Shown: positions 8,194 to 51,709 of the stretch, one piece after another | Position numbering within the stretch: the stretch's first letter is position 1 | Layout: every line of letters begins with the position of its first letter | From: Blautia parvula | Lineage (GTDB): Bacteria; Bacillota; Clostridia; Lachnospirales; Lachnospiraceae | Length of the DNA stretch: 64,000 bases | NCBI RefSeq assembly: GCF_020215665.1 | Contig: NZ_CP084061.1 | Span: forward strand, 1,674,001-1,738,000 | Direction: 5' to 3' | Made by a program: the position numbers and the translations under genes | Notes under the pieces: model-generated | What the model was told of the DNA's origin: nothing | The model's database searches: none | The model's input: the letters and a program-made list of their open reading frames with translations, nothing else

Positions 8194-8195
8194 CC

Positions 8196-18522: not shown

Positions 18523-18537
18523 TTTCCATCGCCCCTT

Positions 18538-18975: not shown

Positions 18976-18995
18976 TGTAAACCGCTCCCTTCCAG

Positions 18996-23257: not shown

Positions 23258-23292
23258 GATATTTTCTCCTTTATGTTTTAATGAATTTAGGG

Positions 23293-24569: not shown

Positions 24570-26612
<2,043 letters not shown>

Positions 26613-34811: not shown

Positions 34812-34830
34812 TTGTATTCCTCCCTGTTTG

Positions 34831-35157
34831 TCAGATGACCTGATTTGTTTTTAACCACTCTTCTACCGCGTCCTGGGAGGGAGGATTGACCACGCGGTCT
34901 GCTTCCTTTCCGTCTTGAAAGAGGATCAGGGTAGGGATGGTGTCTATCTCGTACTGCCGGGCAATTTCAGGCAGTTCGTCGATGTCCGCTTTTGCCACTG
35001 TGACTTTGCTGCCGATTTCAGCTTCCAGCCTTTCCACCGCAGGGGCAAGCCTGCGGCAGTAGCCGCACCATGGAGCCCAGAAGTCCACGACTACCGGTTT
35101 TTCGGATTCTAATACCTCTGTTTGGAATTTTGTTTTTTCGATTGCGTTTACTGACAT
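34831..35157 (-). CDS. trxA: Thioredoxin
   Basis: A 108-residue thioredoxin. The active site reads WCGYC (about residues 31-35) where most thioredoxins have WCGPC. The cis-proline region DTIPTLILF is normal. The Tyr in the redox loop is seen in some clostridial thioredoxins and should raise or alter the reduction potential. It is paired with trxB directly downstream, so the two are likely cognate. Confidence 0.95.
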   Translation of the reverse strand: MSVNAIEKTKFQTEVLESEKPVVVDFWAPWCGYCRRLAPAVERLEAEIGSKVTVAKADIDELPEIARQYEIDTIPTLILFQDGKEADRVVNPPSQDAVEEWLKTNQVI

Positions 35158-35405: not shown

Positions 35406-36929
35406 TTACAATTTTACGTCCACACCTGCATTCTGCACTGCCTTCAGGATCTCACCTTCTAAAATCAGGTTCTGCACAGCCTCGATATAAGGCTCCAGTG
35501 CGGCATCTTCATTCAGCGGCGGCATGACCTCCCTGATCTTCGCGTAGACCGCCTCGATAGCCGGGGAAGACTGGTCAGCCGGGTAAAATTCTTTGGCCTG
35601 GGCAGCGCAGATCAGCTCAATGGCAAGGATATACCGGGCAGTCTCCACCGCGTCACAGGCTTTTCTGGCGGCATTGTATCCCATGTTCACATAGTCCTCC
35701 TGGTTGGCGCAGGTAGGCACATTGTCTACCACAGCCGGATGGGAAAGAAGACGCATCTCCCCTGCAAGGCCGGCTGCCGTGTACTGGATCATCATAAGGC
35801 CGTCATTGAAGTCTGCACTGGCATTTAAAAAAGGCGGCAGTTCGCTCAGATGCCGGTTGACCAGCCGGTCTGTACGGCGCTCTGCCATTTTGGTCAGATC
35901 TGTGAGGGCAATGCAGAGGAAATCTGAAGCCATGCCCAGGTATGTGCCGTCCGCGTTGCATCCCATAAGGGCCTCTGCCTCCCCGTTCTCCTCAAAAATA
36001 AGAGGATTGTCCACAGAGGAATTCAATTCAATATCAATGGACTCCAGGCCGTCCTTCAATGTCTTTTTCACTGCGCCGTGAAGCTGGGGCATGCAGCGCA
36101 GGGACAGGGCGTCCTGGACGCGGTAATCTCTGTATTTTTCCGCGATCCGGCTGCCGGACAAGATATGTCTGATATTCTCGGCTGTCTGCATCTGGCCCGG
36201 ATGGGGTCTGGCGCGCATGAGCCTTTCATCCATTGCCTTTAACGTTCCCTTGAGCATTTCCAGGGAGAACGCACCCGACACATCCGCTGTCCTGGCAAGA
36301 ACCGTGCCGTCGTAATAGGCCAGGCAGGCAAGGGCTGTCACGGATGTGGTTCCCGATACAAGGGTAAGGCCTTCTTTTGAGCCAAGGACGGCGGGCTGTA
36401 AGCCTGCGCGTTCTAAGGCTTCCGCGCCGGAAAGAAGTTCTCCTTCATACCAGGCTCTTCCCTCCCCGATCAGTACCATGCCGATGTGTGATTCCAGGCC
36501 GAGGTAGCCCACAGAACCGTGCTTCGGCACCCTGGGCGTGATGTTCCTGTTCAGCAGTTCCTTTATCAGTTCCAGGGTTTCCAGACGAAAACCGGTGTGG
36601 CCGCTTCCAAAGTGAAGGAGCATGACAAACATCATGGCCCTGACCCCCTCCTCACAGAGCGGCTCCCCCACGGAAACCGTATGGGCCAGAATATGGTTTC
36701 TCTGGATCTTGACTCTGTCCTCCTCGGGAATGAATTTCCTGCAGTTGTCCCCCAGGCCCGTAGTGATACCGTAGATTGCTTTTCCTTCCCTGCTGAAACG
36801 CTCCACATGTGCTCTGCACGCATTGACTCTCGCTCTGTATTCTGCGGAAAATTCCACCTTTGCCCCGTATCTGGCTACTGCCACTACCTGCTCCAGGGAA
36901 TTTTTTCCTCCTAATGTAACAAGTTCCAT
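35406..36929 (-). CDS. Aromatic amino acid lyase-fold protein lacking MIO, copy 1
   Basis: A 507-residue member of the histidine/phenylalanine ammonia-lyase superfamily. The lid tyrosine segment AIYGITTGLG (Tyr53) and the QDxxSLRCxPQ and ANQEDYVNMG segments are conserved. The triad that cyclises to the MIO cofactor, normally Ala-Ser-Gly after GSVG, is Tyr-Leu-Gly at 142-144, and the active-site Tyr before SLRC is Leu. Ordinary ammonia elimination by MIO is therefore not expected. Ergothionase, a relative that expels trimethylamine, works without MIO and is the best model. The ATG at 36929 follows GGAGG; an upstream GTG was rejected. Last gene of the unit, after the Ldh-type gene. Confidence 0.85.
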   Translation of the reverse strand: MELVTLGGKNSLEQVVAVARYGAKVEFSAEYRARVNACRAHVERFSREGKAIYGITTGLGDNCRKFIPEEDRVKIQRNHILAHTVSVGEPLCEEGVRAMMFVMLLHFGSGHTGFRLETLELIKELLNRNITPRVPKHGSVGYLGLESHIGMVLIGEGRAWYEGELLSGAEALERAGLQPAVLGSKEGLTLVSGTTSVTALACLAYYDGTVLARTADVSGAFSLEMLKGTLKAMDERLMRARPHPGQMQTAENIRHILSGSRIAEKYRDYRVQDALSLRCMPQLHGAVKKTLKDGLESIDIELNSSVDNPLIFEENGEAEALMGCNADGTYLGMASDFLCIALTDLTKMAERRTDRLVNRHLSELPPFLNASADFNDGLMMIQYTAAGLAGEMRLLSHPAVVDNVPTCANQEDYVNMGYNAARKACDAVETARYILAIELICAAQAKEFYPADQSSPAIEAVYAKIREVMPPLNEDAALEPYIEAVQNLILEGEILKAVQNAGVDVKL

Positions 36930-36983
36930 ATATACCTCCGCTGCTAAATGACGCACGCAGGGACAAGCCGCTGCGTGCGCATT

Positions 36984-38012
36984 TCAGTTCAGTTTTTTAT
37001 TGTTCTCGTATCCGCCTTCCAGGGACACGCTCATGATTTTCAGCCTCCGGTAGACATCTTCCTCCACTTCCGCCTCATCCGACGGAATCTGGCTTATCGG
37101 CCTGCTCCCGAATATTTCACCCGGTACAAACACCTGACCGCCCGGTTTCATAGGCGGGCAGCCGCGCACATCGCCGGCCAGGGCATCCACCTCCTCTGTA
37201 AAGGTATCCAGAGTTGTGAACATCTCCGGGGAAAATGCCACAAACAGGTAACCCAGATCATATTCATCCCTGGCGTTGTAACCCATTTTCGCCCCCACAA
37301 AAGCACCGGTCATCACCTCCAGCGCATAACAGAGGGCATAGCCTTTCGGTCCGCCGAAGGGCACGCCTGCCTCCGCTTTCTCCGGGTCTGTGGTAAAATT
37401 TCCCTCCCCGTCTATAAAACAGTTGTCCGGCAGAGGGCGGTTCTCCACAATCGCCTGACGCACTTCTCCCCAGACCTTCTGGGAGGTGGCAAAGTCAAAT
37501 ACATAGGGCTTTCCCCTGCCGCTTGGGAAAGAAAAACAAAGGGGATTTGTACCGAACATGGCTTTTGCCCCTCCAAAGGGAGCCACACAGGCCGGGCCTC
37601 CGTTGTTGGTGATCATACCCACAAGACCCTCCCCCGATATCTTTCTGGCATAAGGGGTGATCCTTGAATAGCGGCCCACATTTTTCAGCGCCGTGATTCC
37701 CACGCCGTGTTCCTTTGCCGCGGCGATGGCCAGATTGGTGGAATACAGTGCCGCGATATGGCCCAGTTCTCCGTTACCATCTACCTGGGCATAACAGCCC
37801 TTCTGTTTTAACAGCTTCATCTCTCCGCTTCTCCTGGAAAGGCCTGCATCCACCGTCAGGAATTTTGACAGGCCATGGGTCCTGTGCCCCTCCAGCTCTG
37901 ATTCCAGATAATCGGAGATCATGAATTCCGCGTATTCCCCCGTAATTCCCCTTAAAGCCAGAGCCTTTCTCATCAGCTCTTTTATCTCTTCTATTTTTAC
38001 TGTAACACCCAT
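36984..38012 (-). CDS. Ldh2/malate-lactate dehydrogenase family oxidoreductase
   Basis: A 342-residue NAD(P)-dependent enzyme of the LDH2/MDH2 superfamily (unrelated to classical lactate dehydrogenase). Clear segments are SELEGHRTHGLSKFL (substrate His), KNVGRYSRITPYARK and MITNNGGPACVAPFGG. Later come FGTNPLCFSFPSG, DFATSQKVWGEV and GGPKGYALCYALEVM. Known members oxidise 2-hydroxy acids or reduce cyclic imines such as pyrroline-2-carboxylate. It sits between MttB-like copy 1 and the MIO-less lyase copy 1. Either role would fit processing of the carbon skeleton after amine loss. Confidence 0.88.
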   Translation of the reverse strand: MGVTVKIEEIKELMRKALALRGITGEYAEFMISDYLESELEGHRTHGLSKFLTVDAGLSRRSGEMKLLKQKGCYAQVDGNGELGHIAALYSTNLAIAAAKEHGVGITALKNVGRYSRITPYARKISGEGLVGMITNNGGPACVAPFGGAKAMFGTNPLCFSFPSGRGKPYVFDFATSQKVWGEVRQAIVENRPLPDNCFIDGEGNFTTDPEKAEAGVPFGGPKGYALCYALEVMTGAFVGAKMGYNARDEYDLGYLFVAFSPEMFTTLDTFTEEVDALAGDVRGCPPMKPGGQVFVPGEIFGSRPISQIPSDEAEVEEDVYRRLKIMSVSLEGGYENNKKLN

Positions 38013-38060
38013 AACATTTATCCTCTCTGTAACTGTATCGTACCCTCACAGTTACTCTTC

Positions 38061-39446
38061 TCACAGAATTGCCAGAAGCTCATCCAGCATCTGTGTCTGC
38101 CGTTTATCATAGACAGGCAGACAGTAGGCATCCAGACGCTCTCTCACCATATCCTGGGCTTTTAAGATGACAGAGGGCATGCCGAGCTGCTTCCAGTTGT
38201 GGTAGATCTCACTGTTGAACAGCCTGGGGTGAAACAGCTCTTTCTGATACAGCTCCAGTGTCTCATCCTCCAGCATGTAGGTCCCCCCCGGTCCCACTCG
38301 TTTGATCATGTCCATATGAATGGCTTCCTCTGTTATATAATCGCAGTTCTCCACGGAGAATCTGGCTTCCAGCAGCTCCTCGTCCAGCACGTATTTTTCC
38401 AGGCTGAATACATTTAAACAGTCCATCTCACCAAACGCATGGAAAATAAAATCCGTATCACAGTCAAAGGTGGTCATGAGTGACACGGCAGTCTCCGCGC
38501 CGTCCTGCCAGTCAAGCTGCTTTGCGCCTGACAGGGAGCCTCCCACCCGGGAGGGAATACCGTAAAAATCAGCCATGGCCTTAGCGTACTGCATAAACAC
38601 CGCAACCTCCGGCCCCCAGGAAATGGGAACTGCCTTGCGCATGTCCGCGCTGTAAGTCACATTGCCGTAGACCACCGGAACACCAGGATTTACCACCTGG
38701 GTCATAATAATGCCTGCCAGTACTTCCGCATTGTTCTGCACTACAGTCCCGCCCACCGTGATGGGGCTGGTCATGCCGGGTGCGGAACAGCAGGTGATGA
38801 CAACCGGCTGGTTTTGCTTGACATAGGCCAGGGTCGCTGCCACGTCCTCCCTGCTGTATCGAAGCGGGGAGATGACATTCTCCACACCGATCGTAAAATA
38901 TTCTCCCGTCTCACCGTAAAAGTCCCGGATGAATGCAATGGACTCCGCAGCGCTTTTTCCTGTTTCGCAGGACGCGATCAGTGGCTTTTTGGAGTATTTC
39001 AGGCTCAGGACCGTCTTTAACAGTTCCACCTTGCCGTCCGGAAGGCCCGAGGCATAGATACCCGGCACACAGCACAGATTGACAAAACGGCTGGTCTCAT
39101 CCATCTTCGTGGCATCAATATAATCTTTTACTGTCGGGGTACAGATCTCCCCGTCTCTCAATATGGTCATGGCACCTGAGGCAGTGGAGATGGCCTTTCC
39201 TCCATCCCCTATTTTCAGGCTGGCAAAAGGTGTCTCTATGGTAAAGCTGGGTTTCAGTCCTCTCAATATCTCCTCTGCCAGAGAGCGTTCAAAATACACC
39301 CTCTGTCCATCCACCCGGATTCCTCTTTTTTTGAATACCTCCAGAATTTCCCGGTGTTCAAAATTCACGCCCACACTCTCCAGAATTTCCAGAGACTTCT
39401 CATGAATCATCTGCACTTCTGAATCTTTAATCTTCTTCACGAGCAT
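38061..39446 (-). CDS. MttB-family (non-pyrrolysine) methyltransferase, copy 1
   Basis: A 461-residue TIM-barrel protein of the trimethylamine methyltransferase superfamily. Core segments are GDGGKAISTASGAMTILRDG, CCSAPGMTSPITVGG, VVQNNAEVLAGIIMTQ and the SLSGAKQLDWQDGAE region. The reading frame has no internal TAG, so pyrrolysine is absent. Such homologues (MtgB, MtpB, MtcB type) demethylate quaternary amines such as glycine betaine, proline betaine or carnitine with a corrinoid partner. No corrinoid protein gene is in this window. It is close to copy 2 at 46887 (same segment order, similar length), which suggests a duplicated module. Confidence 0.88.
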   Translation of the reverse strand: MLVKKIKDSEVQMIHEKSLEILESVGVNFEHREILEVFKKRGIRVDGQRVYFERSLAEEILRGLKPSFTIETPFASLKIGDGGKAISTASGAMTILRDGEICTPTVKDYIDATKMDETSRFVNLCCVPGIYASGLPDGKVELLKTVLSLKYSKKPLIASCETGKSAAESIAFIRDFYGETGEYFTIGVENVISPLRYSREDVAATLAYVKQNQPVVITCCSAPGMTSPITVGGTVVQNNAEVLAGIIMTQVVNPGVPVVYGNVTYSADMRKAVPISWGPEVAVFMQYAKAMADFYGIPSRVGGSLSGAKQLDWQDGAETAVSLMTTFDCDTDFIFHAFGEMDCLNVFSLEKYVLDEELLEARFSVENCDYITEEAIHMDMIKRVGPGGTYMLEDETLELYQKELFHPRLFNSEIYHNWKQLGMPSVILKAQDMVRERLDAYCLPVYDKRQTQMLDELLAIL

Positions 39447-39514
39447 AGCAGGTTATTCCTCTCTTCCTGTGCCGGCTCTGCCATGGTCCCGGCCTTCAAT
39501 CTATCACTTTTTCT

Positions 39515-39943
39515 TCACTGCGAAGATGTCTTCAGGATCTCCAGCGTGCCTTTTGTTCCGTCAAGCCTCACATAGTCTCCTGTCTTCACCCGCACGCAGG
39601 GGTCATCCTCCTTGGAAAAATCCACCACGGTGGGAATCTGCATAACAGCGCTTGCCACCCCTGCGCTGCTGTCTATTCTGGAAAATGCCCAGCCCTTTGG
39701 CGCAGAACCGGCAGCCCTGGCAGCCCCGAAATAACAGGACCATCCGTTGGACCCCTTGCTGCCCGGCATGATCAGAATCGTGTCTTTTATGCTCTTCCCT
39801 TTGTTGATGTTCTCATAATCTTTTATCACACCGGTTTTAGGGTCAATGCCGCCCCATCCCGTAATACTGTCGGCACACACCAGTGCTTCCCCTTCCACAA
39901 TGCCCGGTATGACGCCTCTGCCCTGCAGAACTATTTTTTCCAC
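39515..39943 (-). CDS. Aconitase X small subunit (swivel domain), copy 1
   Basis: A 142-residue DUF126/aconitase X swivelling-domain protein. The GRGVIPGIVEGEALVC start and the MPGSKGSNGWSCYFGAAR segment are characteristic, and the Ser-Asn rich loop contributes to the active site. It pairs with the large subunit directly upstream, overlapping its end by 13 bases. The GTG at 39943 follows AAGGAGG. Characterised aconitase X enzymes dehydrate cis-3-hydroxyproline or mevalonate 5-phosphate; the substrate here is unknown. Confidence 0.88.
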   Translation of the reverse strand: MEKIVLQGRGVIPGIVEGEALVCADSITGWGGIDPKTGVIKDYENINKGKSIKDTILIMPGSKGSNGWSCYFGAARAAGSAPKGWAFSRIDSSAGVASAVMQIPTVVDFSKEDDPCVRVKTGDYVRLDGTKGTLEILKTSSQ

Positions 39944-41232
39944 CGGTATTCCTCCTTCCACACACCGGAAACTGCCGCATCCATGCAGCGGTATTTATCC
40001 GTATAATAAACACGCTCGGCACAGCCGTCTGAACGCACGCTTCCGGACTGCTTCAGGCTGTCGTAAGCCTGCCCTTTGTAGTGCTTCAGGAAACAGTCTC
40101 CGATGGTGACCGGACAGGTACTTGTCTGTATGGTTCCCCCGGCATCTTCGATGATCTTCGTATATCCGTTTAAATCCGCCATGGCCTTGATCGGATACAC
40201 GGTCCATACCATAAATCTTACACCATCGTGTATTTTTTTTCCACAAATATAATCAGCGACTTCCTTGATCTGATGGATATCATAGTGGGGACAGCCCAGG
40301 CTGACCAGATCCACAGAACCTTCTTCCGTCTCACAGAGCGCCTCATAGGCTGTGCGGATATCCTTTTCTGTCAAAGTAAATTCCTCCTGCACCTCATGTC
40401 CCATGAAAGCCTCCTCCAGTGTATTGGCTTCCGGCGTGATTCCCACAATATGGCACATCCGGCAGTTGGTGGTAATGGCAAGGGCCGTAAAAAAGCTTTT
40501 CAGCTTCACAAAATCCACGCCCTCAAAATTGCCGGTGAGCACCGGTGTACATCCGGTCAGAGGCAGGCGTTTTCCCATGGCCTTGCCGAGCACTTCCCAT
40601 TCAAGTGGAGAGTCAAGCGCTGCATCCACATGTATGAGATGGGTGCCGTAACGGTTTTCCTTCACATGGTATCCCCAGTATGGTGTCCTGCCGCAGATCG
40701 CTGACCAGAAAGCCGCCTCTATCCCATCCGCGTTGCAGCATGCGCCCCAGATGGAGTTGCCTATAATGGTAACCCCTGACTCTGTCGTCACAAAATGCTC
40801 TCCGCGAACAGGCAGCCACCCCATCAGATAAGGGGAACAGGAGCCGGCTATGGTGACCCCCGCTTTTCTGGATTCCTCCAGATAATAGCTGTTCTTGTCA
40901 AACTCCTCCTTCGGCTGGTCAAAGATCTCATAGTCAAACTGATCGCTGGCAGCCACGCAGGACTGCACATAACAGTCCTTATCCACGCTGTCAAAGACGA
41001 TTCTCTCATCGCGTGCCAGATTCATCCTGGTAAATACATCATGGAAATCCCCGCACTCACAGACATTCAGGTAATTGTGATTACCGCAGAATACAGTGGC
41101 TTTCGTCACTTTACAGAGCTTTTCGGCGCCGAGCACCTGAGCATAGCGCACAATATTCTCCAGTGCTGTCTGACGGAGCCTTCCCTCTCTGCCGTCCAGG
41201 ATATCCTGCTCTTCCTTCGTCAATTGAATCAC
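39931..41232 (-). CDS. Aconitase X catalytic (large) subunit, copy 1
   Basis: A 433-residue DUF521/aconitase X catalytic subunit. Conserved segments are LTKEEQDILDG at the N-terminus, AGSCSPYLMGWLPVRGEH, ESGVTIIGNSIWGACCNADG and SLGCPHYDIHQIKEV. A late SCP/TCP motif (TSTCPVTIGDC) supplies a further cluster cysteine. It should bind an iron-sulfur cluster and carry out a dehydration. It overlaps the preceding small subunit (copy 2) by four bases and its own small subunit by 13, so the four genes are closely coupled. Confidence 0.88.
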   Translation of the reverse strand: MIQLTKEEQDILDGREGRLRQTALENIVRYAQVLGAEKLCKVTKATVFCGNHNYLNVCECGDFHDVFTRMNLARDERIVFDSVDKDCYVQSCVAASDQFDYEIFDQPKEEFDKNSYYLEESRKAGVTIAGSCSPYLMGWLPVRGEHFVTTESGVTIIGNSIWGACCNADGIEAAFWSAICGRTPYWGYHVKENRYGTHLIHVDAALDSPLEWEVLGKAMGKRLPLTGCTPVLTGNFEGVDFVKLKSFFTALAITTNCRMCHIVGITPEANTLEEAFMGHEVQEEFTLTEKDIRTAYEALCETEEGSVDLVSLGCPHYDIHQIKEVADYICGKKIHDGVRFMVWTVYPIKAMADLNGYTKIIEDAGGTIQTSTCPVTIGDCFLKHYKGQAYDSLKQSGSVRSDGCAERVYYTDKYRCMDAAVSGVWKEEYRWKK

Positions 41233-41654
41233 TTGCTCTCCTCCGTTTCCTCCAGGATCTCAATGAACCCCCGGTCTGCATCTACCACGATCCTGTCTCC
41301 GTCCTTCACAGTTTCATAAAATGCAGGCTCTACTCTGTCCACCATGGGCACCTCCATGATGATGGCACTGGATACCAGAACGGTTTCGGGGTGCTCAATG
41401 ATCATAGCAGCCGGTGCGTTTTCCTTCAGGTTTAACTGGTAGAGGCCGTCTGCCTGTACCACGGAGCTGCCCTTACCGCCCGGGAAGATAAGCACCTTAT
41501 GGGCAACGGATCTTCCCTCCAGATCATGGGCCTTCTCTATGACGGTGCCTGTGGCAGGGTCTATCAGATAGAACATAATATGGTCTTTTGACACAACGGC
41601 CTGTGCCTCTGCGCGGCCCTCAGAAATTTTATGGCATGTAAATCTTTTTCCCAT
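41229..41654 (-). CDS. Aconitase X small subunit (swivel domain), copy 2
   Basis: A 141-residue DUF126-type protein. The ISEGRAEAQAVVSKD start and the IFPGGKGSSVVQADGLY loop mark the family, although the loop differs from copy 1. It follows its large subunit by one base and overlaps the next large subunit. The divergence between the two small subunits suggests that the two aconitase X enzymes act on different substrates or stereoisomers. Confidence 0.86.
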   Translation of the reverse strand: MGKRFTCHKISEGRAEAQAVVSKDHIMFYLIDPATGTVIEKAHDLEGRSVAHKVLIFPGGKGSSVVQADGLYQLNLKENAPAAMIIEHPETVLVSSAIIMEVPMVDRVEPAFYETVKDGDRIVVDADRGFIEILEETEESK

Positions 41655-41655
41655 G

Positions 41656-42864
41656 TTATTTTACCTCCCCTGTAAGTGCTGCTTCGATACATGTATCCAG
41701 GTCGCGGATGACAAAATGAATGCCTCTTCGCTGGGGATAGTAAGCACATTTCGGTGACTCCGTGATGCCCACCTTGCCCGTCAGGTGACGCCAGCAGGGC
41801 TGGTCCGGACAGCTGTCCGGGACGATAAAGCCCCCTGCTTTCGTGATAATCTCATCAAATCCCATACGGACTGCCATTTCCTTTACATGGCTGGATGTGA
41901 GGATCCACATTTCCTTTTCCAGTTTTTTTCCTGCCAGCTTCTCCGCAATATATTTTACTTCCTCCAGGGTGAAGTGGGGGCATCCGAACATGGCAAAATC
42001 AATTTTTCTGCTGCCGTCCAGAGAGATTTCTTTTAAGATCGCTTCCTTATCTTCATTGGTAATCACAACGGTCCTCTTTGGTGTCCTGCCTCCAAACGCA
42101 GTTTCCAGATCAGGCGCTTCCGGTGTAAATCCCACAATATGATACATGCCGTAGGCACCTGAAGTATTGAGCTGGGCGCCCAGATTTCTCAGTGCTTCCT
42201 TGGTGATAGTCTCTTTCGGAAAGCCGGTGAATACGGGAATCCCCTCCCCGATCTTCTTGCCCAGCATGCCGATGATATGATAGTCAAAATCATTCTTCAC
42301 ATCTGCCCGGATCTCTACCAGAATATCGCCCTTTCTGTTCTCATCAAGCAAAAGGCCGTACTCCGGCACATAGCCTGTGATGGCTGCACAGAGCGCGCTG
42401 TTTGCGCCCTCCCGGTTTGTCCTGGCACCCCACACGGCATTGGCATAAGGTGTGGCGCTGGACTCAGAAAAGGCGATCACTTCCCTGTAATTCGGTACAT
42501 TGGTGTCAATATAAGGGGTACAGTTGTAGGAAAGCTGTGCGCCCAGTGCTTTGTAGGCGTTGTGCGTTCTCTGCATCAGATCCGCATACTCCGGTGCTAC
42601 CATATCCCTGTTTTTGAAAAATTCCAGACAGAAACCCGGATTGACGGTAGGTGTCACGCGGCATTTTGCGCCTCCTGCCAGCATTTTCTCCGCAAACCAC
42701 AGGTCTGCCTCCTGATTTGACAGGGCCACATGTGCCCTGGTGATGGGAACCATCCTCTCTGCTCCGAAGGACTCACCGATGGCCGCCTGTATTTTCATGG
42801 CGTACGCTGTCCCTTTTCCGTATTTTCCATCCAGCATATCCTGCTGGTGCTGTGTTAACTGCAT
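41656..42864 (-). CDS. Aconitase X catalytic (large) subunit, copy 2
   Basis: A 402-residue DUF521/aconitase X subunit. Segments include LTQHQQDMLDGKYGKG, NCTPYIDTNVPNYRE, the FSESSATPYANAVWGARTN loop, FAMFGCPHFTLEEV and PDSCPDQPCW near the C-terminus (cluster cysteines). It is 31 residues shorter than copy 1. It follows the MIO-less lyase copy 2 by 19 bp. Product and substrate are not known; dehydration of a hydroxy amino acid derivative is a reasonable guess from the family. Confidence 0.88.
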   Translation of the reverse strand: MQLTQHQQDMLDGKYGKGTAYAMKIQAAIGESFGAERMVPITRAHVALSNQEADLWFAEKMLAGGAKCRVTPTVNPGFCLEFFKNRDMVAPEYADLMQRTHNAYKALGAQLSYNCTPYIDTNVPNYREVIAFSESSATPYANAVWGARTNREGANSALCAAITGYVPEYGLLLDENRKGDILVEIRADVKNDFDYHIIGMLGKKIGEGIPVFTGFPKETITKEALRNLGAQLNTSGAYGMYHIVGFTPEAPDLETAFGGRTPKRTVVITNEDKEAILKEISLDGSRKIDFAMFGCPHFTLEEVKYIAEKLAGKKLEKEMWILTSSHVKEMAVRMGFDEIITKAGGFIVPDSCPDQPCWRHLTGKVGITESPKCAYYPQRRGIHFVIRDLDTCIEAALTGEVK

Positions 42865-42883
42865 TTAAAAACCTCCGTTTATT

Positions 42884-44416
42884 TTACTTTTCCAGTACAA
42901 CGCGGGCGCTGTTTAAAAGTCCGCCGTCGTGAATCCAGTCTTTTAATTTTTCCAGGTAAGGATAAATATAGATATCCTCCTCCATGACAGGAACCAGATC
43001 TTTCATCACTTCCAGTACGGCTGCTGTTCCCTCACCCCTTGCCAGGGAATCATCCACAAACTGCTGCGCCTGATAAGCGGAGAGCAGTTCGATGGCCAGG
43101 ATATACTCAAATTTTTCCGCTATGCTAAGCGCCTTTTTGCAGGCATTGTATCCCATGGATACATAGTCCTCCTGGTTGGCGCTTGTGGTCACACTGTCCA
43201 CAGATGCAGGGGCGGATAAGATCTTCATATCATTCAGCAGACCTGCCTGCGTATACTGGGGTATCATAAGGCCGGAATTCAGGCCCGGCTTTTTGATCAG
43301 GAAATAAGGGTGCGCAGACAGTTTTTCGTCCAGGAAACGGACATTTCTGCGCTCTGACATTTTCGCTGCCGCTGTGGCTGCGATACAGGCGGAATCCATC
43401 TCGATTCCCACATAGGAGGCATCCGGATTCCCATTGGAGAACACCTGGGGATCGTCCGGCTCTCCGCATACGATCGGATTGTCCGCGCATCCGTTGATCT
43501 CCACCTCAATGGCTGCCCAGGCATCCCTGAGGGTTTTCTTCACCGCGCCGTGAAGCTGCGGAATACATCTGAGGGATAAGGGGTCCTGTACATGAGTCCC
43601 CTCTGCCTTTTTCGTCACCTGGGAACCGCGCAGCATACGCTTGATGATATCCGCAGTCTCCAGAAGCTCCTTCTGGGGACGGCAGTTCAATACTCTCTCG
43701 TCATAGGCGCGCAGAAGTCCGTTCAGCATCTCAAAGGACATGGCAGCCACCACGTCAGCGGATTCCACGGCTTTTAACAGGTCATATATACCGATGGCAG
43801 CAAGGGCAGTGGGGGAAGAAGTCCCGTTAAGAAGTGCCAGGCCCTCCTTATAACTGGGGGCAAAAGGCGCCATTCCCGCTTTGCAAAGCGCTGTTTTACT
43901 GTCTGAGAGTTCTCCTTTGTAATAGGCCCTTCCCTCTCCCAGTAATACCGCCGCAATGTGGCCCTCCGCACACAGATATCCCACAGAGCCTTCCCTGGGC
44001 GTGTAGGGAATCAGATTCCTGTTCAGGAAATCCCGATAATGCTCCAAAAGCTCTATCCGCACACCGCTGACTCCCATGCCGAGACTCTGCAGGACCATCA
44101 GGATAATGGCCCTTACCTCCTCCTCCTTAAAAGGTTCTCCGACACTGGTAGAGTGTGTCAGAATAATATTTCTCTGTAATTTTTCCGCGTCCTCTTTTCC
44201 TATGGTCTTTGTGACCAGAGCACCGAAGCCTGTGGTGGTGCCGTATACTACCCGCGCCTCATTCACACATGTCTCAACGATCTTCCTGGATTTTTCCACA
44301 CGCTCTCTGTACGCTTCCGAAAATTCCACCTCCGCGTGAAAACGTGCCACTGCCATGAACTCTTCTATGGTCATTTTTTCGCCTAATACTACTTTTTTTA
44401 TCTCTTCTGCTTTCAT
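42884..44416 (-). CDS. Aromatic amino acid lyase-fold protein lacking MIO, copy 2
   Basis: A 510-residue paralogue of the lyase at 35406. VVYGTTTGFG carries the lid tyrosine (Tyr58). ALLNGTSSPTALA keeps the Asn that contacts the cofactor in normal enzymes, and ANQEDYVSMGYNA is intact. The MIO triad after GSVG is Tyr-Leu-Cys (147-149), and the segment before SLRC reads QDPL in place of QDPY. It therefore cannot form the usual electrophile. Loss in both paralogues at the same positions argues for a changed reaction and not for decay. Ergothionase-like elimination of a methylated amine is the leading idea. Confidence 0.85.
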   Translation of the reverse strand: MKAEEIKKVVLGEKMTIEEFMAVARFHAEVEFSEAYRERVEKSRKIVETCVNEARVVYGTTTGFGALVTKTIGKEDAEKLQRNIILTHSTSVGEPFKEEEVRAIILMVLQSLGMGVSGVRIELLEHYRDFLNRNLIPYTPREGSVGYLCAEGHIAAVLLGEGRAYYKGELSDSKTALCKAGMAPFAPSYKEGLALLNGTSSPTALAAIGIYDLLKAVESADVVAAMSFEMLNGLLRAYDERVLNCRPQKELLETADIIKRMLRGSQVTKKAEGTHVQDPLSLRCIPQLHGAVKKTLRDAWAAIEVEINGCADNPIVCGEPDDPQVFSNGNPDASYVGIEMDSACIAATAAAKMSERRNVRFLDEKLSAHPYFLIKKPGLNSGLMIPQYTQAGLLNDMKILSAPASVDSVTTSANQEDYVSMGYNACKKALSIAEKFEYILAIELLSAYQAQQFVDDSLARGEGTAAVLEVMKDLVPVMEEDIYIYPYLEKLKDWIHDGGLLNSARVVLEK

Positions 44417-44428: not shown

Positions 44429-44965
44429 TTAAAAATTTCTGCACACTATATTTCCGTCTGCCGCTATGGGCATATATCTTGCCTTTGTCCCTTCCACCAT
44501 ATCTCCATAGATAGCAATGTAAAACGGGCGGTAGACCTTGCGCTCCTCAACGGGCTTTATAGATAAATTCCTGCCCATATGACGCCTCACCATCCGGGTT
44601 GCCATAATGGCGCCGCAGTCGGTGAGTCTCTTGTCTTCGTAATACGTGGGCTGGATATCATTTTCTTCTATTTCTTTTACTTCAGTTTCAATGTCATCTT
44701 CTACATAAGATGCACTGCAGGTGGTAGCTTCCACCATAACACGGATCTTCTGTCTGTCCTCTTCTTTTTTCTTCTTGATCGCCTTTACAATAATATTATC
44801 TTTGTATGTCATTTCATAAGTGATATAACGGCTCTCCAGATACATAACACGGAGGTTGATCTTCTTTCTGCCAAACAGCGCCCGTACAATAGGGTTCTTT
44901 CCTCCTTTTGCGATTCTGAGAGCCTCTTCCTCTTTCATTTTTACAGGAAAACATTCTATTTTCAT
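44429..44965 (-). CDS. Orphan conserved-context protein
   Basis: A 178-residue soluble basic protein with no family I recognise. It has no membrane segments and no cysteine cluster; it holds three cysteines in total. The middle is rich in Lys and Glu (KAIKKKKEEDRQKIRV), and a likely beta-rich end contains YRPFYIAIYGDM. It lies 12 bp before the lyase copy 2 start and behind a 139-bp gap with a hairpin. A role as an enzyme partner or substrate-specific helper is possible, but nothing proves it. Confidence 0.6.
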   Translation of the reverse strand: MKIECFPVKMKEEEALRIAKGGKNPIVRALFGRKKINLRVMYLESRYITYEMTYKDNIIVKAIKKKKEEDRQKIRVMVEATTCSASYVEDDIETEVKEIEENDIQPTYYEDKRLTDCGAIMATRMVRRHMGRNLSIKPVEERKVYRPFYIAIYGDMVEGTKARYMPIAADGNIVCRNF

Positions 44966-46886: not shown

Positions 46887-48278
46887 TTACAGGTCAAATC
46901 CCTCAAGAGCTTTTTTAAGCACAGCCTTCTGTTTTTCTGTATACTCCGGCGCCGTGTATTCTTTCAGGCGTTTTTCCACCCGTTCCTTTGCTTTCTGCTC
47001 CACGGACACTCTTCCGCTGCGCTCCCACTCCGCATAGTTTTCCATGCTGTAAAGCTCCGGATAGTAAATTTCCGTGCGGTAGCGCAGAATAGTCTCCTCC
47101 TCTGCCAGGTAATTTCCTCCCGGTCCTACTTCCTGAATGGTTTCCAGGTCCATATCTTCCTCTGAGAAAATGTCGATACGCTCCACGGACTTTCTGGCTT
47201 CCATGATCTGCTCATCCAGCACATATTTCTCGAAGCTGAACACATTCAGACCGTCCATCTCGCCGAAGGAGTGGAAAATAAAATCTGCCTTTACATCCAG
47301 GCTGGTCATAAGGGACATGGCTGTCTCCGCGCCGTTCTGGTAATCCAGTTCTTTTCCCATGGACAGGGAGCCGCCGGTACGGCAGGGCACGTGATAGTAA
47401 TCCGCCATTGCCTTTGCGTACTGGATAAACAGTGCCTCCTCACAACCCCAAGAAACCGGCATGGCCTTTCTCATGTTGGAGACATAGGTGGTATTTCCGT
47501 AGATAACCGGGGCGCCGGGGTTGACAAGCTGGGTCATGATGACACCTGCAAGTACCTCTGCATTATTCTGGACAATGGTGCCGCCCAGAGTCACAGGACT
47601 TGTCATGCCGGGAATCGCGCAGCAGGCAATCACCACAGGGAGATTTCTCTTTGTATAGGCAAGCTGTCCTTCTATGTCATCCTTTGCATAGCGCATGGGT
47701 GAGATCACATTTCCCACACCGATGGTATAGTACCCCTCGTCCGTGTCGTAAAAATCTCGGGCGAGCTGTATGGTCTCCTCCGCGTCTGTCTTTCCGAAAC
47801 AGGACATGATGACAGGATGCGTGGAATATTTAAGCGTAAGCGCTCCCTTGATCACCTCTGCCCTCTCCTTTGGAAATGCAGGGATATAGGTAAGCGGTGA
47901 GCTTGACAGATTGATCATGCTGCTTGACGCATCCAGTTTGCGGATATTCACATAATCCTCAGGAGTCGGGTCGTATACCTGATTGTCCCTAAGAATCTTC
48001 CTGGCCCCTGACGCGGAACTGATAGCCTGTCCGCCTTCCCCGATCTTCAGTTCCTCAAAAGGTGTCTTCAGCACAAAACTGGGCGGTACTGTGGACAGTG
48101 CCCGCTCCACTGTCTTTCTGTCGAAATACACACGGTTTCCCTCTGTGCGGATGCCCTGTTTTCTGTACAGCTCCAAAAGCTCGGGATGTTCAAAATCCAC
48201 ACCCATATGTTCCAGCAGATACAGGGTCTTTTCATGAATCGTTTCCAGGTCTGTTTGTTTTATCTGGTTTATTAACAT
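46887..48278 (-). CDS. MttB-family (non-pyrrolysine) methyltransferase, copy 2
   Basis: A 463-residue paralogue of the protein at 38061, with the same segments: GEGGQAISSASGARKILRDN, ACCAIPGMTSPVTLGG, IVQNNAEVLAGVIMTQ and GGSLSMGKELDYQNGAE. No in-frame TAG occurs. It is expected to demethylate a quaternary amine or a related compound and hand the methyl group to a corrinoid protein encoded elsewhere. It is the second gene of the unit, directly after ridA. Confidence 0.88.
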   Translation of the reverse strand: MLINQIKQTDLETIHEKTLYLLEHMGVDFEHPELLELYRKQGIRTEGNRVYFDRKTVERALSTVPPSFVLKTPFEELKIGEGGQAISSASGARKILRDNQVYDPTPEDYVNIRKLDASSSMINLSSSPLTYIPAFPKERAEVIKGALTLKYSTHPVIMSCFGKTDAEETIQLARDFYDTDEGYYTIGVGNVISPMRYAKDDIEGQLAYTKRNLPVVIACCAIPGMTSPVTLGGTIVQNNAEVLAGVIMTQLVNPGAPVIYGNTTYVSNMRKAMPVSWGCEEALFIQYAKAMADYYHVPCRTGGSLSMGKELDYQNGAETAMSLMTSLDVKADFIFHSFGEMDGLNVFSFEKYVLDEQIMEARKSVERIDIFSEEDMDLETIQEVGPGGNYLAEEETILRYRTEIYYPELYSMENYAEWERSGRVSVEQKAKERVEKRLKEYTAPEYTEKQKAVLKKALEGFDL

Positions 48279-48292: not shown

Positions 48293-48673
48293 TTACAATT
48301 TTACAATGGCTCCCACTTCAATCTTCATACCGCCCCACAGTTCAAGGGCAACGCCGCATCTGGCAGGGGGGCATTCGGTGCCGAAAAATTCTGTATATAT
48401 TTCATTCATGGCATCAAAGTCTTTCATTGTAGATAAAAACACATCACATTTCACCACATCCTCCAGCGTAGCTCCCATCTCCTCCACCAACAGTTTCAGG
48501 TTACTGAGGGCTGCTCTCGTCTCCTCCTGGATGGTTCCGTGAATGATCTCACCGGTCTCAGGATTCAGGGCGATCTGTCCCGAAACAAATGCAAATCCTC
48601 CTGCAATGGCTGCCTCAGCCACAGGTCCCCCGAACACTTTCATTCCTTTTGGGGTGAATACTTCTTTCTTCAT
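48293..48673 (-). CDS. RidA family protein
   Basis: A 126-residue RidA/YjgF-type trimer protein that hydrolyses reactive enamines and imines. AGGFAFVSGQIALNPETGEI and the C-terminal ECPPARCGVALELWGG contain the usual substrate Arg in PARCGV. The ATG at 48673 has AAAGGAG upstream; the longer open frame was rejected. As first gene of the unit, it would clean up 2-enamines made by amino acid lyases or dehydratases such as those downstream. Confidence 0.92.
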   Translation of the reverse strand: MKKEVFTPKGMKVFGGPVAEAAIAGGFAFVSGQIALNPETGEIIHGTIQEETRAALSNLKLLVEEMGATLEDVVKCDVFLSTMKDFDAMNEIYTEFFGTECPPARCGVALELWGGMKIEVGAIVKL

Positions 48674-48793
48674 TTCTGCTGTTACTCCTTTCCGTTTTTC
48701 GTCATCTGACTGATAAACTATTTGTACCAGCAATTCGTCGGAAAACCGTCTGCTGTCCAATATTTTTTTCATAATCTTAAGTTTATCTAACAA
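48674..48793 (-). promoter_or_regulatory. Upstream region of the ridA/lyase unit
   Basis: Transcription must start here, because a terminator separates this gap from the regulator gene upstream. No clear -35/-10 pair is visible. It contains CTGATAAA (48710-48717), the core of the repeat found twice before hutU, and an inverted GATAAAC/GTTTATC pair (about 48712-48718 and 48780-48787). Confidence 0.4.
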
Positions 48794-48824: not shown

Positions 48825-51680
48825 TTAACTTTCCATGCTCTTCAGTTCTTCCCACAAAAATCTGCTGTCCAGTTTTTTTGCTATCCTGTCCGCAAGTTCC
48901 CGGCGGCGTTTTCCCTCCTCCGGTTCCCCCTGGGCCTCCTTGATCAGCGCATAGCAAAGCTCCGTTTTTGCCTCTCCCCACAGGGATCCTGCCCGGACAA
49001 AACAGGTACGGGCTTTTTCGGCAAATCGCTCTGCCCCGCTGCAGTCTCCCATGCGGCACAGCGCAAGGCTCATATCCGAGTAGAACACCCCCGCCTCACC
49101 GGAAATCATGTATTTTTCCCCGATTTCCACGGCTCGTTTCAGGCACACACAGGCCTTTTCCCACTTTTTCTGACGGATATAGCAGATGCCCATATCGTGG
49201 TGGCAGGCCGACAGCTCCCTTCTGTAGCGTTCCGTACTGCCATCCGTATGGTCCAAACGTTTTACAGCCTCCATAAAAAGCTTCTCCGCCTTCTCATACT
49301 CACCATCTTTCATCATACAGATGCCCAGATACCGTATGAGCATACACTCCTCCTCCAGATGGTGGCGGGTGCAGTCTTTCATAAACTCCATACAGGTCTC
49401 GATCACCTGACGCATATACGCGTTCTGCCCTGTCAGGTCCCCATACAGAATAAGCTGCAGGTAATTATAGAAAATGTAGTCCCTGTCCGGAATCTCCTTT
49501 GCCAGTTCAAGGCTTTTCTCAATGCAGCTTCGTCCTCTCTGAGAGTCCCTGACGAACATCTCATAACGCCCCAGCAGGTATTCCACCCGCATGCGTATGG
49601 GTGTCATCCCGGAATCCGTCTCCTGCAGTGCCCGAATCTCCTCTGCCAGCTCCACAAGTTCATCTTCCTTAGCCGAAAAACCGTCGATATTGCCGCTGAA
49701 CACGGCTTTTCTGGCCAGCATGGGATAGAAATCGTAGGAGATCCGGTAGAACGCCTCCAGATATTCCACCTTATACCAGTACATTTTATACCGGTCATGA
49801 CAGCACTCATAGTGATGGATGACCAGGGAACAGGTTCCCAGATTTTTGTCCTTCCCATACTCCTGTTCGTAATATCTGGCTATGTAATTGTGGTATATGT
49901 CCTTCTTCTCTTTTGACAGGCTGCTGTATACATACTCCCGGATGATCTGATGGCGGAAGCCATAATGCACCTCTCCGCCCGCCAATTTTTCATAGAGAAG
50001 CTTTTTATCCAGCAGCGGTTCCAGTATCTGCAAAAGCTGCTGCTCCTCCATCCCCAGAATCTGATTGATCTCCTCTTTTGTCACGGGCATGGAAAAGATA
50101 GAGATAATATCCAGCATGACCCGCTCCCGCCTTGAAAGGCTCAACAGACGGCTCTGGATCACATTTGTCATCCTGTCTGTAAATGCAGCGCCGTCCTCCT
50201 GCCGTGCAAACAGCCGCAGGGACTCCATAAAAAACAAAGGATTCCCCTGAGTCTTCCTGTATATCTGCTCCACAAGCTGCGGATTGTTTAAAAGACCCGC
50301 ATCTGTCTCCTCTATGATCTGCCTGGACTCTTCCAGGGTAAATGGCTTTAACTCGATCTCCTTTAAGATTCCCCTTCCGATAAGCGGAATCTTAAAACTC
50401 TTGATATCATCACCGTCATCCTCCCGGCTGGCAGCCACCACAAGTATCTGCCCCTGCCCCATCCGGAACAGGAGATTACTCATAAGCCGCATGCTCATGG
50501 AATCCATCCACTGGATATCATCAATAAATAAGAGGATTTTTCTGTCCCGGAAATATTTTGTCAGGTACCGGAACACAGACTCTGTCAGGATCTCAAATCG
50601 CGTCATAAAAAACTGCACGTCTGAGGCATTCTGCCGAAGCAGAATATCGGTCGGGGACTCTACATCCAGCCCGTTTCGCTTACAGTATTCATCCACCTTC
50701 GCCATGATTCCATGCCAGGGCATCAGATACAGGTCCTTCTCCGTCTCACAGCAGACCCAGGTAAACACCAGATAGTCTGAGTCTTCCACCATCCGCTGGA
50801 TCTGTTCCAGGAGCATGCTCTTCCCCACGCCTGGTTCCCCTGTGATCAAAAAAGAACGGCAGCGCCTCTCCGAATCCCCGTCTTTTGTGTTGATTCTGGA
50901 GTAAATATCATAGAGAATATCCGCTCTTCCGAAAAAATACTCTCCTCTCTCTTCCGGCAGGCGTTTCAGCCTGTTTTTCATATCAGATATTTTCTCATAA
51001 AGCTCCTGTGTCTCCTCCTCCGGCAGTTCCTCCACTTCCCTTTCCAGAAATACTTTCAAAGACTGGAAAATCTCCATTGCCTGAACATATCTTCCCGCCT
51101 CCGCCAGTTTTTTCATGATGCTGCGGTACAGTTCTTCATCCAGGACTTCAGACTGTATGAGGATCCTGCCGCTCTCCTCCAGAAAATCAAGGCCCTGTCC
51201 CGTCTTCTGCCCCATGATCTTAAGCTGCAGCGCTTTTAGATAAGTACGTTTCCGTTCAAAACGCTCTCCCTCCGCCCACGCCTCAAACTCATAGCAGTTC
51301 TTCACAAAGAAAAACTGGAGGAATTCTCCCTTCCAGCTTTCCAGCAGGTTTTCCCTTGTGACATGTTCAATGTCGATATCAATATCCATCTGGCGGTTCA
51401 GGACAATCAAGGTGTTGCCTTCCATAGTCAGAATGTCCTGCCCCAGCACTTTTCTTATATTATAGACAGCATCCCGCAGGTTTTTCCTGGCTGTTGCCTC
51501 ACTGCTCCCTGCCCACAAAACACTGATTGCCTGGCTTCTGGATATCTGGTTATTCACACATAAATAATAAAACAGGCCCTCCACCTTTTGATAAGGAAAA
51601 GAGACCTTTTCCCCCAAAAGTAGTACACCCGGCCGTCCTAAAAGCTGAACTTCTATGTCATGAGAATATCTTCTATCCAT
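48825..51680 (-). CDS. BTAD/AAA/TPR transcriptional regulator (AfsR/SARP-like)
   Basis: A 951-residue regulator. Residues about 10-85 form an OmpR-type winged helix (SRSQAISVLW, ARKNLRDAVYNIRKVLG). A BTAD region follows to about 250. An AAA/STAND ATPase module has Walker A GEPGVGKS (about 288) and Walker B ILLFIDDIQWMD. The last 350 residues are TPR-like helices. ATP and a ligand probably switch it between forms. The ATG at 51680 follows AAAGGTG and matches the family N-terminus; a 35-codon extension was rejected. It lies between the 4Fe-4S gene and the lyase unit and probably controls both. Confidence 0.88.
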   Translation of the reverse strand: MDRRYSHDIEVQLLGRPGVLLLGEKVSFPYQKVEGLFYYLCVNNQISRSQAISVLWAGSSEATARKNLRDAVYNIRKVLGQDILTMEGNTLIVLNRQMDIDIDIEHVTRENLLESWKGEFLQFFFVKNCYEFEAWAEGERFERKRTYLKALQLKIMGQKTGQGLDFLEESGRILIQSEVLDEELYRSIMKKLAEAGRYVQAMEIFQSLKVFLEREVEELPEEETQELYEKISDMKNRLKRLPEERGEYFFGRADILYDIYSRINTKDGDSERRCRSFLITGEPGVGKSMLLEQIQRMVEDSDYLVFTWVCCETEKDLYLMPWHGIMAKVDEYCKRNGLDVESPTDILLRQNASDVQFFMTRFEILTESVFRYLTKYFRDRKILLFIDDIQWMDSMSMRLMSNLLFRMGQGQILVVAASREDDGDDIKSFKIPLIGRGILKEIELKPFTLEESRQIIEETDAGLLNNPQLVEQIYRKTQGNPLFFMESLRLFARQEDGAAFTDRMTNVIQSRLLSLSRRERVMLDIISIFSMPVTKEEINQILGMEEQQLLQILEPLLDKKLLYEKLAGGEVHYGFRHQIIREYVYSSLSKEKKDIYHNYIARYYEQEYGKDKNLGTCSLVIHHYECCHDRYKMYWYKVEYLEAFYRISYDFYPMLARKAVFSGNIDGFSAKEDELVELAEEIRALQETDSGMTPIRMRVEYLLGRYEMFVRDSQRGRSCIEKSLELAKEIPDRDYIFYNYLQLILYGDLTGQNAYMRQVIETCMEFMKDCTRHHLEEECMLIRYLGICMMKDGEYEKAEKLFMEAVKRLDHTDGSTERYRRELSACHHDMGICYIRQKKWEKACVCLKRAVEIGEKYMISGEAGVFYSDMSLALCRMGDCSGAERFAEKARTCFVRAGSLWGEAKTELCYALIKEAQGEPEEGKRRRELADRIAKKLDSRFLWEELKSMES

Positions 51681-51709
51681 GTTTTCACCTTTACCTATTT
51701 TCCGTAAGA

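What the first reader, a model, noticed from the sequence alone, without database searches (positions are those of the whole stretch)
35406..44416. Two ammonia-lyase-fold enzymes that have both lost the MIO cofactor triad
Seen: after GSVG both paralogues have Tyr-Leu-Gly or Tyr-Leu-Cys where Ala-Ser-Gly is needed, and the active-site Tyr before SLRC is Leu in both. The other core segments (lid Tyr, SLRC Arg, QED Glu) remain. Known: histidine, phenylalanine and tyrosine ammonia-lyases need MIO, whereas ergothionase, a relative, removes trimethylamine without it. Inference: these are quaternary-amine lyases or another new elimination activity.
Basis: partly seen in the sequence, partly recalled or inferred. 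Interest (0 to 1): 0.93.

Follow-up and report, generated by a model that had tools for sequence, protein, structure and literature searches.

The report
MIO-free histidine-lyase relatives, probable trimethylamine lyases
Two enzymes built like the histidine-degrading ammonia-lyase have lost its essential built-in cofactor but kept its histidine-ring pocket, and their gene neighbours suggest that they split trimethylamine off a naturally trimethylated histidine, a possible further route to trimethylamine in bacteria.

Summary
Observation confirmed. Both lyases (35406-36956 and 42884-44416, minus strand) are intact PF00221 proteins without Ala-Ser-Gly. The change is larger than stated: Ala becomes Tyr and the next three residues are deleted. 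They belong to a coherent family, here called GSVGY. In 46 distinct sequences this change and a new Glu are constant, and 44 have Leu for the catalytic Tyr280. All 46 keep the histidine-lyase (HAL) lid Tyr, carboxylate Arg and imidazole pocket (His83, Met382, Glu414). Selection is purifying (dN/dS about 0.05).

In relatives a betaine-type (BCCT) transporter lies nearby in 20 of 35 loci, and ergothionase in 4 of 35, against 0 of 14 ordinary HAL loci for either. The genome separately encodes two ergothionase-like lyases and two ordinary HALs.

Best reading: MIO-free trimethylamine lyases for a histidine betaine (hercynine), giving urocanate for the neighbouring Hut pathway. The operon also holds two aconitase-X enzymes, an MttB-type demethylase and an Ldh2-type dehydrogenase that I only partly explain. 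Whether MIO was lost once or twice is unresolved.

The parts
35406..36956 (-). HAL1: MIO-free lyase, motif GSVGYLGLESH, Ser at the PpHAL Asn195 position; last gene of the tight operon. Real start probably 27 bases inside.
36984..38012 (-). Ldh2-family NAD(P)-dependent dehydrogenase (2-hydroxyacid or imine type)
   Evidence: beside HAL1 also in L026, L027, L028, L029
38061..39446 (-). MttB1: non-pyrrolysine MttB-family (quaternary-amine demethylase type) methyltransferase
   Evidence: best PDB match glycine betaine methyltransferase
39515..39961 (-). AcnX small subunit 1
39931..41232 (-). AcnX large subunit 1 (aconitase X family, divergent)
41229..41654 (-). AcnX small subunit 2
41656..42864 (-). 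AcnX large subunit 2; by eye keeps Fe-S Cys and carboxylate/3-OH residues of the AcnX fold, lacks the hydroxyproline landmark Asp
42884..44416 (-). HAL2: MIO-free lyase, motif GSVGYLCAEGH, keeps Asn195
44429..44965 (-). 178-aa protein without Pfam match; homologue near the lyase and an SSS carrier in L007, L008, L064, L067
45396..46817 (-). SSS-family sodium/solute symporter, probable uptake system
46887..48278 (-). MttB2: second MttB-family methyltransferase
48293..48793 (-). RidA-family enamine/imine deaminase; in L028/L029 next to AcnX large subunit 2
48825..51785 (-). large BTAD/AAA/TPR (SARP-STAND) transcriptional regulator
51710..52678 (-). 4Fe-4S protein; homologues in lyase or MttB clusters L008, L061, L070, L106, L107
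24570..26612 (-). urocanase, predicted next enzyme for the urocanate produced
23293..24546 (-). imidazolonepropionase-like amidohydrolase (Hut pathway)
22364..23299 (-). glutamate formiminotransferase (FTCD N part)
21672..22307 (-). formiminotransferase-cyclodeaminase C part

Best explanation
HAL1 and HAL2 belong to an unnamed family of MIO-free lyases on a histidine-ammonia-lyase scaffold. They probably catalyse 1,2-elimination of trimethylamine from histidine betaine (hercynine) or a very close imidazole betaine. Imported by a BCCT or SSS carrier, the substrate is held by the unchanged HAL imidazole pocket (His83, Met382, Glu414) and by Arg283 (carboxylate), and loses its beta proton to the lid Tyr53. 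The quaternary nitrogen is already a good leaving group, so no electrophilic MIO is needed; its place is taken by a new Tyr and a new Glu that could cradle the trimethylammonium. The products would be trimethylamine and urocanate, the latter entering the Hut pathway encoded about 9 kb away. Shown: MIO triad lost, pocket kept, purifying selection, gene contexts. Inferred: leaving group, substrate, roles of the new Tyr and Glu. HAL1 (Ser195, as in most ergothionase-like rows) is the likelier trimethylamine lyase; the HAL2 type was found only in genomes that hold another family member and may act with it or on a related betaine.
For: Triad replaced by Tyr plus a 3-aa deletion; HAL ring pocket His83/Met382/Glu414 in 46 of 46 distinct rows, whereas plant PAL 1w27 has Leu/Lys/Gln there (aligned by eye). 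The GkHAL paper ties His82 (SH motif), Glu411 and a conserved Met to histidine recognition or activity (PMC11432326 passages). Tyr280-to-Leu is shared with ergothionase-like rows, 44/46 and 6/6. A carrier lies nearby in 28 of 35 loci (BCCT 20, SSS 8) against 0 of 14 canonical HAL loci; ergothionase in 4 of 35 against 0 of 14. A sigma-54 promoter precedes the transporter or lyase gene in 17 of the 18 loci tested, of 20 with a regulator hit; about 0.014 expected per stretch. Urocanase is in 24 of 26 family-positive genomes against 18 of 38 negatives that I chose; within family f1 outside the genus 4/4 against 0/17. Removing MIO abolishes ammonia elimination in a PAL (PMC3903478 passage). dN/dS about 0.05.
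Against: No assay and no substrate seen. The window operon also carries AcnX, Ldh2 and MttB genes that a one-step route to urocanate does not need. SSS specificity is unknown. Two family-positive genomes lack a urocanase hit (G015, G140); in family f45 the correlation runs the wrong way (1/2 against 6/6), and in the own genus the negatives are 5/5. The HAL control is imperfect: two of its 14 stretches (L111, L113) were cut at 8.5 and 12 kb, and the adjoining stretches (L107, L106) hold MttB, AcnX, a sigma-54-type regulator and, by eye, a betaine-type ABC importer next to an ordinary HAL. Loci are not independent: many come from one genus. HAL2 keeps Asn195 and position 329 is Ala or Pro in 40 of 46, so the pockets are not identical to HAL. 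The model has low confidence at the active site, so the Tyr/Glu role is a guess.
Confidence: 0.5

Rival explanations
1. They are MIO-free quaternary-amine lyases, but for another betaine: an ergothioneine derivative (S-methyl, sulfonate, seleno) or a betaine of another ring amino acid.
For: Same BCCT, MttB and ergothionase contexts; at least two family lyases in all 13 genomes with the HAL2 type suggest more than one substrate.
Against: The full HAL pocket including Met382 is kept in 46 of 46, while ergothionase-like rows have Gly (4) or Ser (2) there; the own genome already has two ergothionase-like genes.
Confidence: 0.23
2. The leaving group is not trimethylamine: the enzymes dehydrate imidazolelactate, or release dimethylamine from dimethylhistidine made by the MttB enzymes; the new Glu acts as the acid for the leaving group.
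For: Ldh2 lies directly before HAL1 in five loci; MttB lies nearby in 5 of 35 loci.
Against: The commonest neighbour is a BCCT carrier, a family named for betaine, carnitine and choline; many loci show only carrier, regulator and lyase among the genes I tallied, with no MttB or Ldh2.
Confidence: 0.13
3. One of the pair (HAL2 type) is a non-catalytic or helper subunit of a mixed tetramer with the Ser195 type.
For: The HAL2 clade occurs only in genomes with another family member (13 of 13). HAL active sites are shared between subunits (recalled).
Against: The catalytic positions are kept in HAL2 as in HAL1, with similar purifying selection; in L061 and L062 HAL2 stands without a second lyase on the retrieved stretch.
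Confidence: 0.09
4. They are still ammonia-lyases that work without MIO, or decayed HAL copies.
For: Best sequence and fold matches are HALs.
Against: Below the NCBIfam HAL cut-offs, MIO triad deleted in 46 of 46 with dN/dS about 0.05 for the window genes, and two canonical HALs are present besides.
Confidence: 0.05

Closest known systems
Histidine ammonia-lyase (HutH; PDB 1gkj/1b8f, 7tqr)
   Same: Fold (best Foldseek matches 1gkj and 7tqr); lid Tyr53, His83, Gln277, Arg283, Met382, Glu414 in 46 of 46.
   Different: No Ala-Ser-Gly (Tyr plus 3-aa deletion), Tyr280 is Leu in 44 of 46, new Glu at Leu149, Phe329 mostly Ala or Pro; below curated HutH cut-offs.
Ergothionase (Treponema denticola, PDB 6s7j/6s7q)
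   Same: MIO-free member of PF00221; Tyr53, His83, Leu280, Arg283, Glu414; Ser195 in 5 of 6 ergothionase-like rows and 29 of 46 here; BCCT carrier in 3 of 5 ergothionase loci looked at.
   Different: Its loop is GE(A/G)-D with a 1-aa deletion and it lacks Met382; separate clades, each 100/100, although one common MIO loss is not rejected (p-AU 0.527).
[quoted passage not shown] mevalonate-5-phosphate dehydratase)
   Same: The neighbouring AcnX pair 2 by eye keeps the Fe-S Cys, Glu, Ser, Lys, Tyr set described in PMC8184944.
   Different: Lacks the hydroxyproline landmark Asp203 (numbering mapped by me); perhaps one of the subclasses IIc-IIf that the paper calls uncharacterised.
MttB/MtgB-type quaternary-amine methyltransferases
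   Same: PF06253; best PDB match of MttB1 is a glycine betaine methyltransferase.
   Different: Substrate unknown; MttB1 far below the pyrrolysine MttB cut-off, 211.7 against 525 bits.

Membership tests
MIO-dependent ammonia-lyases/aminomutases | PF00221 fold | tested here: met
   540.6 and 509.8 bits against cut-off 27.3; HAL1 model Foldseek E 8e-26 to HAL
MIO-dependent ammonia-lyases/aminomutases | Ala-Ser-Gly triad that forms MIO | tested here: not met
   Tyr plus 3-aa deletion in both window proteins and all 46 rows
MIO-dependent ammonia-lyases/aminomutases | catalytic Tyr280 | tested here: not met
   Leu in both window proteins and 44 of 46
Histidine ammonia-lyase | imidazole pocket His83, Met382, Glu414 | tested here: met
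   46 of 46; PAL 1w27 differs at all three (by eye)
Histidine ammonia-lyase | curated HutH score | tested here: not met
   508 and 486.2 against 539.15 (TIGR01225); 510.1 and 501.7 against 524 (NF006871)
Ergothionase | sequence clade and GE-D loop | tested here: not met
   separate clade 100/100, motif absent
Ergothionase | shares one MIO-free ancestor with the window lyases | tested here: inconclusive
   AU test p 0.527 on 31 rows
Ergothionase-like trimethylamine lyase (function) | releases trimethylamine without MIO | not testable with these tools
   needs purified protein
cis-3-hydroxyproline dehydratase (AcnX neighbour) | Asp203 landmark binding the proline nitrogen | tested here: not met
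   absent in the alignment of AcnX large subunit 2 to 7d2r/7cnp; residue numbering mapped by me
BCCT-linked catabolic operon | BCCT carrier near the lyase | tested here: not met
   true for 20 of 35 family loci and 0 of 14 HAL loci, but the window stretch has an SSS carrier instead

The most novel reading that the evidence does not exclude
The window holds a complete, undescribed route for trimethylated and hydroxylated histidine derivatives that all converge on urocanate. A paired MIO-free lyase (possibly a mixed tetramer) releases trimethylamine from hercynine, while an aconitase-X enzyme dehydrates imidazolelactate, made by the Ldh2 enzyme from imidazolepyruvate, to urocanate. The second part is hinted at by G1033, whose Hut operon contains AcnX pair 2 while no PF00221 lyase was found in its genome, listed as 100% complete in about 50 contigs.
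Probability: 0.17. Interest if true: 0.82.

Novelty: new variant of a known kind. Interest (0 to 1): 0.64.

Why it matters
Ergothionase is the only MIO-free lineage of this superfamily known to me (recall) or met in the paper listings and passages seen. A second family with the full histidine pocket but no MIO makes it directly testable what MIO is needed for: the leaving group rather than the ring chemistry. If the substrate is hercynine, which a review names among the main metabolites found after volunteers took ergothioneine (PMC7653990 passage), these bacteria may hold an uncounted source of trimethylamine. Annotation pipelines would probably call such genes histidine ammonia-lyases (inference).

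Tried and rejected
Rejected: simple ergothionase membership (scores, motif, separate own-genome ergothionase-like genes). Rejected: pseudogenes (dN/dS about 0.05). Considered and dropped: AcnX plus Ldh2 as a hydroxyproline-betaine route, because AcnX pair 2 lacks the landmark Asp and its homologues lie with Hut genes in 3 of the 4 other genomes found among 398 searched; the fourth (L105, contig edge) has a histidinol-dehydrogenase homologue instead. Thioredoxin and its reductase (33900-35157) were considered as partners and dropped: 248 b gap, and separated from HAL1 in G009. Two independent MIO losses could not be claimed (AU p 0.527), although the trees draw the clades apart. The AlphaFold model (pLDDT 69.5, pTM 0.77, stretches at the active site under 50) confirmed only the fold. 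A first sigma-54 pattern had the wrong spacing; corrected. No such site was found before the window operon. Papers: ten searches of a library that lacks most subscription journals. I saw listings with abstract openings (searches listed 20 of 959 and 12 of 862), passages of PMC13405746, PMC11432326, PMC7653990, PMC3903478 and PMC9002059, and five sections of PMC8184944. None of that describes this family or a hercynine lyase; the searches for hercynine with urocanate and lyase, and for hypaphorine with trimethylamine and lyase, returned nothing. The ergothionase structure and thiourocanate desulfhydrase papers are not held.
Full report
WHAT IS THERE. They score below both curated HutH cut-offs. 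The DNA shows GSVG-YLG-LESH and GSVG-YLC-AEGH. In the alignment with P. putida HAL, Ala142 is Tyr and Ser143, Gly144, Asp145 are missing. The genome (6.25 Mb, one contig, organism not named to me) has six PF00221 genes: two canonical HALs with GASGD, these two, and two with a GE(A/G)-D loop. One of the last two scores 522 bits against T. denticola ergothionase; the other falls in the same clade.

A FAMILY, NOT AN ACCIDENT. Close hits, at differing thresholds and with the own genome counted in the first three: 15 of 61 near relatives, 5 of 391 genomes of the class, 7 of 397 of the family with HAL2 as query, 5 of 59 and 2 of 22 in two further families (overlapping). Of the 63 lyase rows, 54 carry GSVGY; the other nine are P. 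putida HAL, the two own HALs, T. denticola ergothionase and five ergothionase-like genes. The tree used 54 of the 63 rows (nine dropped beforehand: partial copies of genes also held in longer form, except L053_9, a G455 lyase); 45 rows form one clade with 100/100 support, apart from the six ergothionase rows and three HALs. dN/dS of the window genes against two near relatives is 0.045-0.065; a third comparison (G011) was saturated.

ACTIVE SITE. The 54 GSVGY rows reduce to 46 distinct ones. Of 60 columns invariant in them only three differ from both P. putida HAL and the own HAL L001: Tyr at Ala142, Glu at Leu149, and a Lys at 426. Tyr53, His83, Gln277, Arg283, Met382 and Glu414 are 46 of 46; Leu280 44 of 46; position 195 is Ser in 29, Asn in 16, Thr in 1; position 329 is Ala 22, Pro 18, Phe 4, Cys 2. 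The residue before His83, Ser in HAL, is Thr 23, Ser 16, Ala 7, so the 'SH' motif of HAL is only partly kept. Ergothionase-like rows (6): Glu142, Leu280 6 of 6, Ser195 5 of 6, Phe329 6 of 6, Gly or Ser at 382. Plant PAL has Leu, Lys and Gln at the positions of His83, Met382 and Glu414 (aligned by eye). In Geobacillus kaustophilus HAL, His82, Glu411 and a conserved Met are linked to histidine recognition or activity (PMC11432326, passages only). So this is a histidine pocket with the electrophile removed. A PAL without MIO loses ammonia elimination (PMC3903478, passages), so the leaving group is probably better than ammonia. Ergothionase lacks MIO and releases trimethylamine (PMC13405746, passages).

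CONTEXT. In 35 family loci (several truncated, many from one genus; genes called by BLAST on non-overlapping ORFs at E 1e-20, so genes under a longer antisense ORF can be missed) a BCCT carrier is present in 20, an SSS carrier in 8, a sigma-54-type activator in 20, AcnX in 8, MttB in 5, ergothionase in 4, urocanase in 4. In 14 canonical HAL loci: BCCT 0, SSS 0, ergothionase 0, AcnX 0, MttB 1, sigma-54-type activator 1, urocanase 4. In one of the 14 (L150) the HAL itself was hidden by an antisense ORF, and two (L111, L113) are cut short; the stretches next to these two (L107, L106) hold urocanase, a sigma-54-type activator, AcnX, MttB and, by eye, a betaine-type ABC importer, so an ordinary HAL can also sit in a quaternary-amine setting. 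The seven family loci without either carrier are L010, L028, L029, L039, L062, L063 and L078. BCCT and Sigma54_activat were checked with Pfam for one member each, the rest by BLAST. A -24/-12 sigma-54 site lies in the 350 b before (or just inside) the first gene in 17 of 18 loci tested (the 20 with a regulator hit less L008 and L009); background expectation is about 0.014 per stretch. The BCCT proteins beside these lyases in L068, L077, L079 and L080 are 60-61% identical to the one beside the own-genome ergothionase; in L069 and L070 58 and 55%, in L071 and L081 44 and 49%, in L065 31%. In L069, L071 and L081 ergothionase, xanthine-dehydrogenase-like subunits, BCCT and a family lyase share one cluster. 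Urocanase (PF01175) is present in 24 of 26 family-positive genomes (all positives with a handle except the own) and in 18 of 38 negatives that I chose by hand from the same searches; outside the genus in family f1 4 of 4 against 0 of 17, in f64 5 of 5 against 7 of 10, in f45 1 of 2 against 6 of 6, in f55 1 of 1, in the own genus 13 of 14 against 5 of 5. So the association is strong in one family and absent or reversed in others.

THE WINDOW OPERON. 178-aa protein, HAL2, AcnX large 2, small 2, large 1, small 1, MttB1, Ldh2, HAL1 are packed with gaps of -31 to 68 b, with an SSS carrier and MttB2 upstream. The gene set rearranges between genomes: HAL1-Ldh2-AcnX2-RidA (L028, L029), MttB2-HAL2-AcnX1-MttB1 (L061), HAL2-AcnX2-AcnX1 next to a regulator and urocanase (L062). 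In Acidaminococcus an AcnX small subunit is fused in frame to an ergothionase-like lyase in the same cluster as HAL1. AcnX pair 2 homologues sit with Hut genes in L106, L107 and L108; in G1033 (L108) no PF00221 gene was found although its genome is listed as 100% complete. This suggests that AcnX pair 2 supplies urocanate by dehydration, perhaps of imidazolelactate; the chemistry would differ from the C2-H/C3-OH removal described for AcnX (PMC8184944, sections read), so this is a lead only.

MECHANISM PROPOSED. Shown by sequence: loss of MIO, kept pocket, kept lid Tyr. Inferred: uptake of histidine betaine, deprotonation at the beta carbon by Tyr53, departure of trimethylamine assisted by the new Tyr/Glu pair, urocanate to Hut. 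My odds that the family eliminates a quaternary amine: about 0.7; that the substrate is hercynine: about 0.5.

ONE OR TWO LOSSES OF MIO. The trees draw ergothionase and this family apart, but holding them together costs 0.37 log units and is not rejected (p-AU 0.527). I therefore make no claim of independent loss.

HAL1 AND HAL2 TOGETHER. The HAL2 clade has 13 rows from 13 genomes, each of which also holds another family member. Genomes with family members but no HAL2 type seen exist (G712, G742; G140, G285, G853). Why two lyases are kept is unexplained.

STRUCTURE. An AlphaFold model of HAL1 from six aligned sequences (pLDDT 69.5) matches HAL best (1gkj E 8e-26; 6s7j ergothionase E 5.8e-21) but stretches at the active site are unreliable.

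VERDICT. A real MIO-free branch of the HAL fold, not described in anything I saw, with a well-supported quaternary-amine context; substrate predicted, not shown.

Noticed in passing
24570-26612 and G000:C1:1740327-1742369 (L040): Two urocanase genes about 40 kb apart, one in the Hut cluster and one in the ergothionase cluster, are 99.5% identical in DNA over the gene and not in the flanks, while the genes differ by about 6.6% between species and the two copies in G009 are again 99.6% identical over the 1041 b compared: gene conversion or repeated duplication.
   Followed up: partly
L108 (G1033) 5045-11395: A Hut operon with urocanase, imidazolonepropionase-like gene and AcnX pair 2 in a genome listed as complete in which no PF00221 lyase was found; AcnX may be an alternative source of urocanate.
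   Followed up: partly
L103 (G000:C1:811500-818500): A second AcnX pair 2 homologue (78% identical) with a TRAP-type transporter (named by eye), a lactate-racemase-like (Lar_N) protein and a URO-D-family protein, suggesting a hydroxyacid substrate.
   Followed up: partly
L007 14932-16872: In-frame fusion of an AcnX small subunit with an ergothionase-like lyase in Acidaminococcus massiliensis.
   Followed up: no
L106, L107 (with L113, L111): Clusters with Hut genes, an ABC transporter resembling quaternary-amine importers (by eye), two MttB homologues, a probable corrinoid protein (by eye) and AcnX pair 2, but an ordinary HAL: possibly demethylation instead of lyase chemistry for the same betaine.
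   Followed up: no
L110 (G000:C1:5553000-5570000): BCCT, AcnX pair 1 homologue (44%), two MttB homologues and a 2-oxoacid:ferredoxin-oxidoreductase-like set (by eye): another betaine pathway in the same genome.
   Followed up: no
14361-20414: Methylaspartate ammonia-lyase, glutamate mutase (MutE, MutL) and a citrate-lyase-type alpha subunit: the methylaspartate route of glutamate fermentation downstream of Hut.
   Followed up: no
L065 3522-17627: Three MIO-free GSVGY lyases, xanthine-dehydrogenase-like subunits, BCCT, urocanase and a thiamine-diphosphate enzyme in one cluster; one lyase keeps Tyr280 and Phe329.
   Followed up: no
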